NCBI RefSeq assembly: GCF_001556045.1
Contig: NZ_LSIC01000006.1
Location: 1 to 26,310 of the forward strand
Direction of reading: 5' to 3'
DNA: 26,310 nt
Source: Bradyrhizobium sp. CCH5-F6
Lineage (GTDB): Bacteria > Pseudomonadota > Alphaproteobacteria > Rhizobiales > Xanthobacteraceae
Program-made: the position numbers and the translations under genes
Notes under the pieces: model-generated
The model's database searches: none
Seen by the model: the letters and a program-made list of their open reading frames with translations, nothing else
Told to the model about the DNA's origin: nothing
Shown: positions 2,635 to 22,350 of the stretch, in pieces
Layout: every line of letters begins with the position of its first letter
Position numbering within the stretch: the stretch's first letter is position 1

Positions 2635-2780
2635 GCCCCACTCAGGCGTGAAATTCGCAGCTTTCGCCGGAACAATGCGGCCTGCCGCGCACGTGGAAAA
2701 CCCTGTCCCGGCGCCCCATATGGGACCAATCCCTGTTAGAAGGCTCCCTTCCGCCACCCCGCGGTGCCATCGTGGGGCCC

Positions 2781-5348
2781 ATGATTCGCATGACCGAGCC
2801 GAGCAAGATCACGTCCCAGAATGTCCCCGACCACCAGCCCGCAGCCGGCGGCATCGCCGCGCGTGCGCGTGCCTCGGTGGGGCCGAAATACCTCTCTGGG
2901 CTCAATCCGGAGCAGCGGGAGGCCGTGGAGACGCTGGACGGCCCGGTTCTCGTGCTGGCCGGCGCCGGCACCGGCAAGACGCGCGTGCTGACCACTCGCA
3001 TCGCCCATATCCTGAGCCAGGGCCGCGCCCGTCCCGCCGAGATCCTGTCGGTGACCTTCACCAACAAGGCCGCGCGCGAGATGAAGCACCGGCTCGGCCA
3101 GATGCTCGGCCACGCCGTGGAAGGCATGCCGTGGCTCGGCACCTTCCACTCCATCGGCGGCCGCATCCTGCGTTTCCATGCCGAGCTGGCGCAGCTCAAG
3201 TCGAACTTCACCGTGCTCGACGTCGACGACCAGGTGCGGCTCTTGAAGCAACTCCTGCAGGCCGAGAACATCGACGACAAGCGCTGGCCTGCCCGCATGC
3301 TGGCCGGCCTGATCGATGGCTGGAAGAACCGCGGACTGATGCCGTCGCAGGTGCCATCGGGCGAGGCTGCCGTCTTCGCCAACGGCAAGGGCGGCAAGCT
3401 CTATGCGAGCTACCAGGAGCGGCTGAAGATCCTGAACGCGGCCGATTTCGGCGATCTCTTGCTCGAGAACATCCGGATCTTCCGCGAGCACCCGGATATC
3501 CTGCGGCAGTACCAGCTGCGCTTCAAATACATCCTGGTGGACGAGTATCAGGACACTAACGTCGCACAATATCTGTGGCTGCGACTGCTCTCGCAGGCGC
3601 CGGCGGCTTCTTCCTTCACCTCTCCCCGCCTACGGGGAGAGGTCGCATCGCAAAGCGATGCGGGTGAGGGGGACTCTCCAAGCACCGAGCTCGTGGAGAG
3701 TCCCCCTCACCCCGCAAGCGAGGCGAGGGAGCAGACGCCCCACGTCAAAAACATCTGCTGCGTCGGTGACGACGACCAGTCGATCTACGGCTGGCGCGGC
3801 GCCGAGGTCGACAACATCCTGCGCTTCGAGCACGATTTCCCCGGGGCCAAGGTCATTCGCCTGGAGCGCAACTACCGCTCGACCGGCCACATCCTCGCGG
3901 CCGCCTCGCATTTGATCGCGCACAATGAAGGCCGGCTCGGCAAGACGCTGCGCACCGAGGACCAGGACGGCGAGAAGGTCACGGTGACCGGCTCCTGGGA
4001 TTCGGAAGAGGAAGCGCGCGGCATCGGCGAGGAGATCGAGCAGCTGCAGCGCCAGGGCGAGAAGCTCAACGAGATCGCAATCCTGGTGCGCGCCTCCTAC
4101 CAGATGCGCGAGTTCGAAGACCGCTTCGTCACACTCGGCCTGCCCTATCGCGTCATCGGCGGCCCGCGCTTCTACGAGCGCGCCGAGATCCGCGACGCGC
4201 TGGCTTACTTGCGCGTCATCAATTCGCCGGCCGACGACCTCGCCTTCGAGCGCATCGTCAATACGCCCAAGCGCGGCCTCGGCGATGCCACCGTGCAGAT
4301 GCTGCACGACCACGCCCGCAAGCGCCGCATTCCCTTGTTCGAAGCCGCGCGCGCGGTGGTCGAGACCGACGAGCTGAAGCCAAAGGCGCGCGGCTCCTTG
4401 CGCGATCTCATCACCCAGTTCGATCGCTGGCGCGCCCAGCGCGAGGTCACTGCGCATACCGATCTCGCCCAGATCGTGCTCGACGAGAGCGGCTACACCG
4501 AGATGTGGCAGAAGGACCGTTCGGCGGACGCGGCCGGCCGGCTGGAGAACCTGAAAGAACTCGTGCGTTCGATGGAGGAATTCGAGAACCTGCAAGGGTT
4601 CCTGGAGCACATCTCTCTCGTGATGGACCGCGAGGGCGGCGCCGAGGAGGACGCGGTGTCGCTGATGACGCTGCATTCGGCCAAGGGCCTCGAATTCGAC
4701 AACGTGTTCCTGCCGGGTTGGGAGGAAGGCCTGTTCCCGAGCCAGCGCACGCTGGACGAACAGGGCCGCGCTGGCCTCGAGGAGGAGCGCCGGCTCGGCC
4801 ATGTCGGCCTGACCCGCGCGCGCCGCCGCGCAAAGATCTATTTCGCGACCAACCGGCGGATTCACGGCACCTGGTCGACCACGATCCCGTCGCGTTTCCT
4901 CGACGAATTGCCGGCGGCCAATGTCGAGATCACGGAATCCAAGGGCGGCTCGGCCTGGGGCGGCACCGGCGGCTACGGCGCCTCGCGCTTCGACGACATG
5001 GAAGCGTTCGGCTCCAGCTATTCGACGCCGGGCTGGCAGCGCGCGCAGGCCAACCGCAACCGCGGCGGCCAAGGCGGCCGCAATGGCGGGGCCGCCTCGT
5101 TTTCCTCCGCGTCGTCCTCACCCGATTTCGGCAGCTTCTCCTCGCGCCGCCGCGGCCCTCTGACGATCGAGGGCGAGCTGGTCGCCAAATCCACCGGCAC
5201 GACCTCGGAGTTCTCGCTGGAAGACCGCGTGTTCCACCAGAAATTCGGCTATGGCCGCGTCACCAAGATCGACGGCAACAAGCTCACCATCGCCTTCGAC
5301 AAGGCCGGCGAGAAGAAGGTCGTGGACAGTTTCGTGCAGCGGGCGTGA
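2781..5348 (+). CDS. UvrD/PcrA-type superfamily 1 DNA helicase with a 46-residue in-frame repeat insertion
   Basis: The 855-aa protein is an ATP-dependent 3'-5' helicase for DNA repair and replication-transcription conflicts. Seen: Q motif LNPEQREAV (41-49), Walker A AGAGTGKT (60-67), motif Ia VTFTNKAAREMK, motif II DEYQDTN (254-260), motif III VGDDDQSIYGWRGA (328-341), motif IV LERNYRS, motif V LMTLHSAKGLEFDNVFLPG, motif VI EEERRLGHVGLTRA. After a Gly/Ser/Arg-rich linker (about 710-790) comes a C-terminal Tudor-like segment (EDRVFHQKFGYGRVTKIDG), as in PcrA that binds RNA polymerase. Between motifs II and III about 46 residues (273-318) derive from a palindromic DNA repeat. Start choice is uncertain: GTG 2772, ATG 2781 or ATG 2790. 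All catalytic motifs are intact, so the enzyme is probably active. Confidence 0.93.
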   Translation: MIRMTEPSKITSQNVPDHQPAAGGIAARARASVGPKYLSGLNPEQREAVETLDGPVLVLAGAGTGKTRVLTTRIAHILSQGRARPAEILSVTFTNKAAREMKHRLGQMLGHAVEGMPWLGTFHSIGGRILRFHAELAQLKSNFTVLDVDDQVRLLKQLLQAENIDDKRWPARMLAGLIDGWKNRGLMPSQVPSGEAAVFANGKGGKLYASYQERLKILNAADFGDLLLENIRIFREHPDILRQYQLRFKYILVDEYQDTNVAQYLWLRLLSQAPAASSFTSPRLRGEVASQSDAGEGDSPSTELVESPPHPASEAREQTPHVKNICCVGDDDQSIYGWRGAEVDNILRFEHDFPGAKVIRLERNYRSTGHILAAASHLIAHNEGRLGKTLRTEDQDGEKVTVTGSWDSEEEARGIGEEIEQLQRQGEKLNEIAILVRASYQMREFEDRFVTLGLPYRVIGGPRFYERAEIRDALAYLRVINSPADDLAFERIVNTPKRGLGDATVQMLHDHARKRRIPLFEAARAVVETDELKPKARGSLRDLITQFDRWRAQREVTAHTDLAQIVLDESGYTEMWQKDRSADAAGRLENLKELVRSMEEFENLQGFLEHISLVMDREGGAEEDAVSLMTLHSAKGLEFDNVFLPGWEEGLFPSQRTLDEQGRAGLEEERRLGHVGLTRARRRAKIYFATNRRIHGTWSTTIPSRFLDELPAANVEITESKGGSAWGGTGGYGASRFDDMEAFGSSYSTPGWQRAQANRNRGGQGGRNGGAASFSSASSSPDFGSFSSRRRGPLTIEGELVAKSTGTTSEFSLEDRVFHQKFGYGRVTKIDGNKLTIAFDKAGEKKVVDSFVQRA
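3593..3739 (+). repeat. Composite palindromic repeat inserted in frame within the helicase gene
   Basis: Three successive perfect hairpins are visible: an 11-bp stem at 3618-3628/3633-3643, an 8-bp stem at 3644-3651/3655-3662, and a 19-bp stem at 3662-3680/3694-3712 with a 13-base loop containing GAGCTC. The whole is flanked by GCAGGCGCC (3593-3601) and GCAGACGCC (3731-3739), an 8-of-9 direct repeat 138 bases (46 codons) apart. The encoded peptide (TSPRLRGEV..., ...ESPPHPASEAREQTP) is low in complexity and unlike any helicase segment. Parts of the element recur at 2334-2362 and 23859-23932. Confidence 0.85.
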
Positions 5349-5355
5349 GGCCTGC

Positions 5356-5643
5356 ATGGCTCATTACGTCGCCATCATCGAGGACGCCGGCCCGGACGAT
5401 CCCGTCAGCCTCTGGTTTCCCGACCTGCCCGGCTGTATCTCCGGCGGCGACGACGTCGAGGAGGCCCTGGAGAATGCGCCCGAGGCGCTCGCGTTCTATG
5501 CGCAGGAGCTGAGCACGGACGGCCGCCAGCTTCCCCCGCCGCGGACCCTGGACGAGCTCAAGGCCGATCCGGAGTTTGCCGACGATCTGGGGAAACACAC
5601 CGTGGCACTGATCGAATGGCCACCCCTCGACGCCGCCGAGTGA
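5356..5643 (+). CDS. HicB-like protein, no HicA partner visible
   Basis: The 95-aa protein begins MAHYVAIIED and carries WFPDLPGCISGGDDVEEALENA, the signature of the HicB N-terminal domain (a degraded RNase H-like fold) that neutralises HicA mRNA-interferase toxins. The C-terminus (about 60-95) is short and acidic and shows no helix-turn-helix or ribbon-helix-helix, so it probably does not bind DNA by itself. It starts 7 bases after the helicase stop and may be co-transcribed with it. No HicA-sized basic frame lies on either side, so it is an orphan. It may be a stand-alone regulator or a remnant. Confidence 0.8.
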   Translation: MAHYVAIIEDAGPDDPVSLWFPDLPGCISGGDDVEEALENAPEALAFYAQELSTDGRQLPPPRTLDELKADPEFADDLGKHTVALIEWPPLDAAE

Positions 5644-20627: not shown

Positions 20628-20727
20628 GTCATTCCGGGGGCGCCTCGAAGAGGCGAACCCGGAACCTCGAGATTCTCGGGTGCGCAGTTGCGCACCATAG
20701 GTCGCGCGTCGCGCGCCCCGGAATGAC
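20628..20727. repeat. 100-bp palindromic repeat with GTCATTCC ends
   Basis: The element opens GTCATTCCGGGGG and closes CCCCGGAATGAC, terminal inverted repeats that are nearly perfect over about 16 bases. Inside are further short palindromes, such as CGCCTCGAAGAGGCG, CTCGAGATTCTCGGG, GTGCGCAGTTGCGCAC and GCGCGTCGCGCG. It looks like a dispersed intergenic repeat of Bradyrhizobium-like genomes. It fills most of the 227-bp divergent gap and ends 12 bases before ATG 20740, directly beside its ribosome binding site. Confidence 0.75.
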
Positions 20728-20739
20728 ACCAGGGAAGTC

Positions 20740-22350
20740 ATGAACGAAACCGACGTCATCATCATCGGCGCTGGCCATAACGGCCTCACCTGCGCGGCCT
20801 ATCTCGCGATGGCAGGCCTGCGGGTGCGCGTGGTCGAGCGACGCAAGGTGGTCGGCGGCGCCGCCGTCACGGAGGAGTTTCACCCCGGCTTCCGCAATTC
20901 GGTCGCGGCCTACACCGTGAGCCTGCTCAATCCGCAGGTGATCCGCGACCTCGAGCTCGCCGAGCAGGGCCTGCGCGTGGTCGAGCGGCGCGCGCAGAAT
21001 TTTCTGCCGGCGCCCGACGGCAGCCATCTCCTCACCGGCGAGGGGCGGACGAAAGCGTCAGTCGCGCGGCTCAGCGCGCATGATGCGGAGGCGCTCGACG
21101 GCTTCGCGCGCGAGCTGGAAGACATCGCCGACGTGCTCAGGCAGTTCGTGCTGCGCGCGCCCCCGAACCTGCTGGACGGATTTGGCACGAACGCGATCCG
21201 CGAAGCCGTGAACGCGCTCCAGAGCGCCAACATCCTGCGCGGCCTCACGCTGGAACAGAGCCGCAGCCTGCTCGATCTCTTCACCCGTTCGGCCGGCGAA
21301 ATGCTGGACGAGCGTTTCGAGCACGATCTGGTCAAGGCGCTGTTCGGCTTCGACGCCATCGTCGGCAACTATGCCAGCCCCTACGCCGCCGGCTCGGCCT
21401 ATGTGATGCTGCATCATGCCTTCGGCGAGGTGAACGGCAAGAAAGGTGTCTGGGGCCATGCCATCGGCGGCATGGGCGCGATCACGCAGGCGATGGCGCG
21501 CGCGGCACGCGACCGCGGTGTTGTCATCGAAACGGATGCCGGCGTCCGTGAGATCATCGTCGAGCGCGACCGCGCCGTCGGGGTCGTGCTGGAAAACGGC
21601 TCGGCCATCCGCGCCAGATATGTCGCGGCCAACGTCAATCCGAAGCTGCTCTATACGCGGCTGGTCGCGTCCGATGCCCTGCCCCAGGACTTTCTTGCGC
21701 GCATCCGGCACTGGAAGAACGGCTCCGGGACCTTCCGCATGAACGTGGCGCTGGACCGCTTGCCCTCCTTCACGGCGCTGCCGGGCGAGGGGGACCATCT
21801 CAGCTCCGGCATCATCCTCGCGCCGAGCCTCGACTACATGGACCGCGCGTATCTCGATGCCCGCGCGCGGGGCTGGAGCCGCGAGCCCGTCGTCGAGATG
21901 CTGATTCCCTCGACGCTCGACGACACGCTGGCGCCCACCGGCAAGCATGTCGCGAGCCTGTTCTGCCAGCATGTCGCGCCGGAACTTCCAGATGGAAGGT
22001 CGTGGGACGACCATCGCGAAGAGGTCGCAGATCTCATGATCGCGACGGTGGATAAGTACGCGCCCGGCTTTGCGGCGAGCGTGCTCGGCCGTCAGATCCT
22101 GTCCCCGCTCGATCTCGAACGGCAGTTCGGCCTTCTGGGCGGAGACATCTTCCACGGCGCGCTGACGCTGAACCAGCTGTTCTCGGCGCGACCGATGCTG
22201 GGCCATGCCGATTACCGCGGGCCGTTGAAAGGCCTCTACCATTGCGGCTCGGGCGCCCATCCCGGCGGCGGCGTCACCGGCGCCCCCGGCCACAACGCGG
22301 CGCAGGCGATCCTGCGGGATCACCGGTCGCTGTTCAGAAGCCGTGGATAG
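20740..22350 (+). CDS. FAD-dependent oxidoreductase, phytoene desaturase/PYROXD2-like
   Basis: The 536-aa protein begins with a dinucleotide-binding motif VIIIGAGHNGLTCAAYLA (about 6-23), an ERRKVVGGAA element (about 34-43) and ends with GLYHCGSGAHPGGGVTGAPG, typical of the amine-oxidase/phytoene-desaturase superfamily and closest in layout to PYROXD2. Members dehydrogenate hydrophobic substrates, but PYROXD2-like proteins have no settled substrate. ATG 20740 is preceded by AGGGA six bases upstream, just outside the palindromic repeat. No carotenoid gene is adjacent, so a carotenoid role is not supported. The last codons overlap the start of a CTGTGG-repeat region. Confidence 0.88.
   Translation: MNETDVIIIGAGHNGLTCAAYLAMAGLRVRVVERRKVVGGAAVTEEFHPGFRNSVAAYTVSLLNPQVIRDLELAEQGLRVVERRAQNFLPAPDGSHLLTGEGRTKASVARLSAHDAEALDGFARELEDIADVLRQFVLRAPPNLLDGFGTNAIREAVNALQSANILRGLTLEQSRSLLDLFTRSAGEMLDERFEHDLVKALFGFDAIVGNYASPYAAGSAYVMLHHAFGEVNGKKGVWGHAIGGMGAITQAMARAARDRGVVIETDAGVREIIVERDRAVGVVLENGSAIRARYVAANVNPKLLYTRLVASDALPQDFLARIRHWKNGSGTFRMNVALDRLPSFTALPGEGDHLSSGIILAPSLDYMDRAYLDARARGWSREPVVEMLIPSTLDDTLAPTGKHVASLFCQHVAPELPDGRSWDDHREEVADLMIATVDKYAPGFAASVLGRQILSPLDLERQFGLLGGDIFHGALTLNQLFSARPMLGHADYRGPLKGLYHCGSGAHPGGGVTGAPGHNAAQAILRDHRSLFRSRG

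What the first reader, a model, noticed from the sequence alone, without database searches (positions are those of the whole stretch)
3593..3739. Palindromic DNA element domesticated inside a PcrA/UvrD helicase
The helicase gene carries 138 bases (46 codons) with three nested perfect hairpins, including a 19-bp stem, between motif II (DEYQDTN) and motif III (VGDDDQSIYG). In known helicases this stretch is short. The frame is kept and all later motifs are intact. GCAGGCGCC and GCAGACGCC flank the element like a target-site duplication, so the ancestral protein probably read LSQxPHVKN. It resembles the Rickettsia palindromic elements that insert into genes, but in a rhizobial background and in a housekeeping motor. 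The loop would project from domain 1A near the ATP site, and the hairpins could stall transcription of a helicase gene.
Basis: partly seen in the sequence, partly recalled or inferred. Interest (0 to 1): 0.82.

Follow-up and report, generated by a model that had tools for sequence, protein, structure and literature searches.

The report
Revolving-door hairpin insert in UvrD helicase
A DNA-repair helicase of soil bacteria related to Bradyrhizobium carries, in one flexible loop, a stretch of repetitive hairpin DNA that is read as protein; related species carry different hairpin repeats at the same spot, so the loop looks like a long-standing landing place for repeats rather than a single accident.

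Summary
In detail: the helicase frame (2772-5348) contains an in-frame, strongly folding palindromic insert (fold z -9.5) between motifs II and III. It is not peculiar to this strain. The loop reads through at 54-109 residues in 129 of 130 fetched Bradyrhizobium-group loci (the other has a frame break), against 32 or fewer in 48 of 80 named Hyphomicrobiales loci. Occupants differ: at least four palindromic families (A in the window), found elsewhere in genomes too. The best flank tree needs 67 class changes, some between genes 2% apart. The peptide is weakly constrained (dN/dS 0.57-0.68 in close pairs, flanks 0.04-0.06), yet A, B and C are each read in one frame (141 of 142). The loop is predicted disordered. 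A double ABC ATPase linker behaves alike, while 0 of 32 elements in an 800-kb control were in-frame in genes. The target-site duplication is not supported. REPs in UvrD-type genes were reported in 2013 (PMC3733652); new here is one site with continual turnover. Whether the hairpins have a role is open.

The parts
2772..5348 (+). UvrD/PcrA-type helicase gene, 858 codons (GTG start as listed; an in-frame ATG lies at 2781)
   Evidence: Pfam UvrD-helicase and UvrD_C; best NCBIfam model TIGR01073 pcrA, below its cut-off; PDB UvrD/PcrA
3540..3560 (+). motif II DEYQDTN (residues 257-263), left anchor
3603..3734 (+). palindromic insert (about residues 278-321), family A repeat plus short junction codons; exact ends uncertain by a few codons
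   Evidence: loop compared with relatives; most length-variable place of the protein; pLDDT below 50 for 280-322
3618..3643 (+). hairpin 1, 11-bp stem
3644..3662 (+). hairpin 2, 7-8-bp stem
3662..3712 (+). hairpin 3, 19-bp perfect stem, 13-nt loop
3765..3791 (+). motif III GDDDQSIYG (residues 332-340), right anchor

Best explanation
The insert is one copy of a dispersed palindromic repeat (family A) lodged in-frame in a disordered surface loop of the helicase between motifs II and III. The loop is an old, permissive docking site: in the Bradyrhizobium, Rhodopseudomonas and Nitrobacter groups it holds one of several palindromic families (A, B, C, D) or a remnant, and longer loops, at least one of them a dispersed repeat, also occur in some other Hyphomicrobiales. 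Shown: the occupants, copies of them elsewhere in genomes, the difference of class between close relatives, the kept frame, the weak constraint on the peptide, and the single reading frame used by each of A, B and C. Inferred: occupants have been lost and replaced many times; new copies arrive by the repeats' usual (unknown) mobility; copies elsewhere in genes are removed by selection; here a copy survives if it is stop-free and read in a frame poor in aromatic residues and cysteine, because the loop hangs off the fold without touching the motor. The protein is presumably made with the extra residues, as a tolerated passenger.
For: Occupants: the 120 best homologues listed have 54-94 residues between the motifs. 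129 of 130 fetched Bradyrhizobium-group loci (one search found the gene in 144 of 146 genomes) read 54-109: B 61, A 46, C 15, decayed or unclassed 7. Rhodopseudomonas group, 12 read of 15 matched of 16 searched: C 6, A 4, D 2; Nitrobacter group, 8 read of 9: A 1, C 1, other 6. Of 80 named loci (the best 80 kept of 587), 48 have 32 residues or fewer, 41 of these exactly 20 or 24. The Ancylobacter genome (loop of 20) has none of A, B, C. Class differences: 67 changes on the best flank tree of 167 rows; well-supported branches alone force 31 for A, 25 for B, 17 for C; A/C at 2.0%, A/B at 2.5-2.6% flank difference. Tolerance: insert dN/dS 0.57-0.68 (flanks 0.038-0.062) for pairs with flank identity 0.90 or more. 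Frame: A 52 of 53, B 65 of 65, C 24 of 24 in one frame although on average 3.9, 2.5 and 3.0 of six frames are open; the used frame has the lowest share of W, F, Y and C in each class. Specificity: 0 of 32 elements in 800 kb of a related genome are in-frame in coding DNA, while the same caller accepts 110 of 110 detected helicase elements (119 loci). Loop predicted disordered.
Against: Stem columns of class C are conserved more than neutrality predicts (about 97% identity whatever the host distance), and class B stems keep pairing through paired changes: some nucleic-acid-level constraint or re-seeding from dispersed copies, not pure passenger decay. Near-total occupancy in the Bradyrhizobium group is surprising for mere tolerance. 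One genome has a frame break inside the insert (L255), so read-through is not universal, or that record is in error. The used frame is not the most hydrophilic open one in any class. No mobilising mechanism and no target-site duplication was found. The Nitrobacter insert classed A by motif (L017/L281) gave no match to the window's element (G008, 0 matches), so class A is broad there. For distant pairs (flank identity 0.80-0.90) insert dN/dS is 0.73-1.00 and alignment is unsure.
Confidence: 0.8

Rival explanations
1. The hairpins, not the peptide, are kept: a hairpin cassette inside uvrD acts on DNA or mRNA (pausing, mRNA stability, or feedback on helicase synthesis), and any palindromic repeat family can supply it.
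For: Class C (20 rows): stems stay 0.967-0.977 identical while host third positions range from 0.68 to 0.90, and unpaired columns follow the host; REP tag and stems 0.98-1.00, spacer 0.58-0.77. Class B (22 of 65 rows, chosen by length): 96.9% of cells paired, 65 cells with both sides changed against 27.5 in shuffles, slid controls 0-14. Occupancy is near total in the Bradyrhizobium group.
Against: In class A and one class B subset the stems do track host distance (Mantel 0.27 and 0.64), and class B stems are only 0.82-0.90 identical. In one search two measures hardly exceed shuffles (pairs with both sides changed 10 against 7.6; further pair types 22 against 22.3). Conserved stems and tags are also what repeated seeding from a uniform dispersed family gives; loop variants are similar inside and outside the helicase. 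Loops without recognisable repeat motifs exist (for example L163, L285-L287). The structures were taken from the same alignments, which favours them.
Confidence: 0.12
2. Hot spot: the repeats' mobilising enzyme prefers this DNA site, so occupancy reflects targeting rather than tolerance.
For: Same codon region used by several families; left host sequence GCAGGCGCC stands in many loci of classes A, B and C.
Against: Several families share the site; a second, unrelated protein linker shows similar recurrent occupancy; no conserved target duplication; none of 32 elements in the control stretch is in-frame in a gene.
Confidence: 0.12
3. Old allele classes A, B and C are shuffled between species by homologous recombination; fresh insertions are few.
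For: In the cases compared, helicase-borne copies match some other species' helicase copy better than the best other copy listed in their own genome: L001 A 91% against 86%, L004 B 92% against 82%. One frame per class. A class C unit-2 motif has its only exact match in the helicase in G030, G137, G103 and G049. In class A, core and host divergence rise together (r 0.65; B 0.26, C 0.29).
Against: Insert class is hardly linked to the nearest flanks (nearest neighbour shares class in 0.42-0.46 within 150 nt, chance 0.40, 120 rows; little variation there, so low power), so exchanged tracts would have to be very short. One clade keeps its own left stub with both A and B occupants.
Confidence: 0.25
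4. The peptide has a protein-level function (for example a disordered binding tail).
For: Frames with few aromatic residues and cysteines are kept; dN/dS is below 1 and third codon positions have a slight excess in close pairs.
Against: Different peptides occupy the same loop; dN/dS 0.57-0.68 is more than ten times that of the flanks.
Confidence: 0.06
5. Assembly or sequencing artefact.
For: Some draft assemblies split the gene at the insert (G159, G161, G167; G106); one frame break.
Against: Read through in 129 genomes, one per species, including a chromosome-length contig of 9.34 Mb in G102.
Confidence: 0.01

Closest known systems
GTAG- and CGTC-tagged REPs inside genes (Di Nocera et al. 2013, PMC3733652; outline, passages, sections 6, 7, 15 and part 1 of section 17 read)
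   Same: Short palindromic repeats, CGTC types mostly in alphaproteobacteria including Bradyrhizobium; copies inside DNA-repair genes, 'UvrD/REP helicase' named; different REPs at about one site in recB of two Xanthomonas species. Families B and C here have CGTC ends, AT-started stems and a head-to-head arrangement.
   Different: The paper says that REPs in other genes of one category sit at different sites. Here one helicase loop is occupied in nearly every sampled member of a genus group by several families. Family A has no CGTC or GTAG tag that I could see.
Rickettsia palindromic elements (RPE) in protein-coding genes (known here through PMC3733652 and passages of the review PMC10969869; one original paper, PMC186582, was looked up and is not held)
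   Same: Palindrome read in-frame as an extra peptide in a housekeeping protein; in PMC3733652 RPE-4 and RPE-6 are themselves CGTC repeats.
   Different: RPEs decorate many unrelated genes of one genus; here the striking case is one gene site, several families and several genera of free-living bacteria.
UvrD/PcrA helicases of known structure (2is6, 1pjr, 3lfu)
   Same: Motifs and domain order.
   Different: E. coli UvrD has 5 residues where the window has 53.

Membership tests
UvrD/PcrA (SF1A) helicase | UvrD N- and C-terminal domains with motifs | tested here: met
   Pfam PF00580 5.5e-83, PF13361 1.3e-68; PDB sequence and fold matches. NCBIfam equivalog cut-offs for pcrA, uvrD and rep are not reached, so the exact subfamily is open.
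Dispersed palindromic repeat family (MITE/REP-like) | copies elsewhere in related genomes | tested here: met
   family A 14-43 matches in each of six Bradyrhizobium-group and Rhodopseudomonas genomes, 0-2 in four others (capped, some places counted on both strands). The window's own genome was not held.
CGTC-tagged REP | CGTC tag, 8-9-bp stem starting AT, 4-5-nt loop, CCA tail: class C unit 1 | tested here: met
   CGTC, ATTGCCGGG/CCCGGCAAT, 5-nt loop, CCA in the consensus of 21 aligned rows of 24 class C cores (definition from PMC3733652)
CGTC-tagged REP | same features in class B | tested here: inconclusive
   CGTC end and an 8-bp AT-started stem, but a long loop and another tail; the paper allows odd loops in Bradyrhizobium CGTC-1
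CGTC-tagged REP | same features in the window's own element (family A) | tested here: not met
   no CGTC or GTAG tag at its ends, by reading the sequence; only the works-like claim is kept
Rickettsia palindromic element | sequence homology to an RPE family | not tested
   no RPE sequence was fetched
Transposed element | target-site duplication | tested here: not met
   5 of 53 family-A loci reach 8 of 9; mean equals shuffles; classes B, C and D were not tested for it
Described RNA family (Rfam) | gathering score | tested here: not met
   0 matches in the window

The most novel reading that the evidence does not exclude
The uvrD gene of this bacterial family has kept a hairpin cassette in its coding sequence since before its genera parted, with the nucleic-acid structure rather than the peptide under selection, and selfish repeat families serving as interchangeable suppliers; it might be a built-in sensor or brake that couples helicase synthesis to hairpin handling.
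Probability: 0.12. Interest if true: 0.85.

Novelty: new variant of a known kind. Interest (0 to 1): 0.6.

Why it matters
In-frame repeats in bacterial proteins are usually treated as scattered accidents. Here a single loop of a repair motor gives a natural experiment repeated over more than a hundred species: the same protein with many different inserts, partial losses, and a clear test of whether the peptide, the hairpin or neither matters. It also points to linkers as a steady route by which selfish repeats become protein, and a second such linker was found in passing.

Tried and rejected
Target-site duplication: rejected for family A. A lone recent insertion: rejected by the 120 listed homologues and 129 of 130 fetched loci. 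Artefact: rejected. Linkage of insert class to the nearest flanks: nearly absent (short flanks have little variation, so power is low). Literature: among the papers listed by searches I saw none on this helicase loop in Bradyrhizobium, which required five words together including Bradyrhizobium and uvrD, returned only PMC3733652. Most subscription papers are not in the library.

Weak points: classes come from short motifs with mismatches, B and C motifs partly cross-match, and some rows are unclassed. Core boundaries are approximate. The flank tree is a quick one with 55 of 164 inner branches unsupported; changes cannot tell gain from loss. All 223 loops are multiples of three by the way they were read. 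Match counts are capped at 40 scored candidates per genome, include the helicase copy and count some palindromic places on both strands. Of 50 dispersed-copy loci (L081-L130) 48 were examined, two of them (L086, L129) with approximate positions because the loci are short. Six are the helicase itself; 10 frames were sent to Pfam, of which one (L108) has domains on both sides and one (L086) on one side; others with spanning frames (for example L087, L090, L093, L099, L120, L126) were not sent. The gene caller uses base composition by codon position, not annotation. For some searches I gave 21 of 24 class C and 22 of 65 class B cores, dropping rows of other lengths; one search used 20 class C rows and class B in four length groups. 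The AF2 model has pTM 0.42 and its best PDB match superposes poorly overall (TM 0.31-0.40), so only local order was used.
Full report
OBSERVATION. The helicase frame 2772-5348 is intact and carries a palindromic insert of about 44-46 codons between motif II (3540-3560) and motif III (3765-3791). Stems of 19 and 11 bp are exact and the stretch folds far better than 200 shuffles (z -9.45; other strand z -7.41). No Rfam family reaches its gathering score in the window.

THE SITE IN RELATIVES. The 120 best homologues listed, of 7999 scored, have 54-94 residues between the motifs. Of 80 named loci (the best 80 kept of 587), 48 have 32 or fewer, 41 of them exactly 20 or 24, and 32 have more. In the genus group of B. 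frederickii, 144 of 146 genomes gave a match. I took 130 of these as loci (30 returned, 100); the loop could be read in 129, at 54-109 residues. The one failure (L255) has a frame break inside the insert. Of the 14 other matched genomes at least 3 were read through named loci (L004, L006, L014) and 11 were not fetched. The residues are not conserved: by DNA motifs the 129 split into B 61, A 46, C 15 and 7 decayed or unclassed. Rhodopseudomonas group: 12 read of 15 matched of 16 searched, C 6, A 4, D 2; in the three others the gene is split between contigs at the insert. Nitrobacter group: 8 read of 9, A 1, C 1, other 6. One Nitrobacter-group pair (L281, L283) shows a full and a half element.

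COPIES ELSEWHERE. In ten genomes searched, family A has 43, 28, 29, 14, 39, 36, 2, 0, 0 and 1 matches, B 47, 7, 9, 67, 49, 72, 6, 4, 0 and 0, C 1, 0, 4, 13, 0, 25, 0, 2, 0 and 0. At most 40 candidates per genome were scored, some palindromic places count on both strands, and the helicase copy is included, so these are rough. The genome with a 20-residue loop (Ancylobacter, G009) has none of the three. Against a tidy picture, the Nitrobacter genome G008, whose insert I class as A by motif, has no match to the window's element. Family D was seen outside the helicase by motif. Outside these genera, the insert of Tianweitania (L048) has 14 matches in its own genome, itself included, and 28 in that of L073, while the Mesorhizobium insert L079 matched, besides itself, only the helicase of L036's genome among six searched. 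B and C have similar tagged ends, so the families are distinguishable rather than all unrelated.

TURNOVER. On a tree of 167 rows built from the flanks, insert class changes 67 times at the least (least possible 6, shuffled mean 83.1, none of 200 shuffles as low); class A needs 48 changes against 48.2 in shuffles, C 23 against 23.7, B 38 against 51.8; well-supported branches alone force 31, 17 and 25. Class differs between genes 1.7-2.6% apart, for example L141 (A) and L167 (C), and L205 (A) and L227 (B), the latter two sharing a left stub. The nearest neighbour by flank sequence shares the class in 0.41-0.53 of cases by window (chance 0.40), with no peak beside the insert (120 rows).

SELECTION. 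For pairs with flank identity of 0.90 or more, insert dN/dS is 0.57-0.68 (flanks 0.038-0.062), and differences spread over codon positions 0.27-0.32 / 0.28-0.33 / 0.39-0.41 (flanks about 0.12 / 0.03 / 0.85 in the closest pairs). For pairs at 0.80-0.90 the insert ratio is 0.73-1.00. The loop is the most length-variable place in the protein (sd 13.2; next 4.9; 164 rows). A is read in one frame in 52 of 53 rows, B in 65 of 65, C in 24 of 24, although on average 3.9, 2.5 and 3.0 of six frames are open in them. In each class the used frame has the lowest share of W, F, Y and C; it is not the most hydrophilic open frame. Since related rows inherit their frame, these counts are not independent events.

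CONTROLS. In 800 kb of a related genome (G102) 32 elements were found and none is in-frame in coding DNA. The same caller accepts 110 of 110 detected elements in 119 helicase loci and 17 of 22 in 30 ABC loci. In passing, one dispersed copy (L108) lies between two ABC ATPase domains. Of 60 genomes searched with that protein 30 matched; in all 30 loci the linker keeps one frame, and by my count of the listing 18 hold family A, 9 family C in another frame than in the helicase, 3 neither. One search lists in-frame stops in some of these matches, which I did not locate; none lies in the linkers printed, one of which (L329) is partly masked. So the helicase loop is not the only such site.

HAIRPINS. 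In class C (20 rows) stem columns stay 0.967-0.977 identical whatever the host third-position identity (0.68-0.90), while unpaired columns follow it (Mantel 0.44, P 0.004; stems 0.02). Split by REP architecture, tag and unit stems are 0.98-1.00, the inter-unit spacer 0.58-0.77 and host-tracking, the unit-1 loop about 0.81 and not host-tracking; dispersed copies show similar loop variety (13 of 20 with the commonest loop, helicase 12 of 25). A unit-2 motif has its only exact match in the helicase in G030, G137, G103 and G049; the listing was cut off for other genomes. Class A and one class B subset differ: their stems do follow the host (Mantel 0.27 and 0.64), and class B stems are 0.82-0.90 identical. 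In class B (22 rows) 96.9% of cells pair and 65 cells have both sides changed (shuffles 27.5; slid controls 0-14), but the number of pairs with such changes (10 against 7.6) and of pair types (22 against 22.3) hardly exceeds shuffles. This fits selection on the hairpin in class C, but also repeated seeding from dispersed families whose stems are uniform or differ by paired changes. I could not separate the two.

STRUCTURE. AF2 on 39 sequences puts residues 280-322 below pLDDT 50, between helix 264-274 and strand 327-333 (pTM 0.42). Foldseek's best match is UvrD (2is6, E 1e-57), with poor overall superposition (TM 0.31-0.40). From the general topology of RecA-like domains (recalled) this loop is on the face away from the ATP cleft.

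PRIOR WORK. PMC3733652 (outline, passages, sections 6, 7, 15 and part 1 of 17 read) describes CGTC REPs in Bradyrhizobium, notes REPs inside genes including UvrD/REP helicase, and speculates on mutator effects. PMC10969869 (passages) summarises Rickettsia elements. The kind is known; the fixed site with serial occupants is the new part as far as the held literature and the searches named above show.

VERDICT. A real, in-frame repeat in a permissive helicase loop, part of a recurrent docking site. Confidence 0.8 in that; the role of the hairpins is open.

Noticed in passing
L108:590-2569 (-) and L313-L342: A double ABC ATPase (dipeptide-transporter type by Pfam) has a similar recurrent repeat linker: 18 family A, 9 family C, 3 neither of 30 loci, all in one frame.
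   Followed up: partly
window 20628-20727: An intergenic family B element just upstream of an FAD-dependent oxidoreductase-like gene (20740-22350).
   Followed up: no
window 5356-5643 (+): A HicB-like antitoxin gene (PF15919) starts 7 bases after the helicase stop codon, so the two may be co-transcribed.
   Followed up: no
L255 (G036): The reading frame is broken inside the helicase insert: a real lesion or a sequence error.
   Followed up: no
G159, G161, G167; G106: Draft assemblies split the helicase gene between contigs at the insert, as strong inverted repeats may cause.
   Followed up: no
L036 and L079 (Mesorhizobium): Their helicase loops share a repeat-like sequence that, among six genomes searched, matched only the helicase of these two, so its origin is unclear.
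   Followed up: partly
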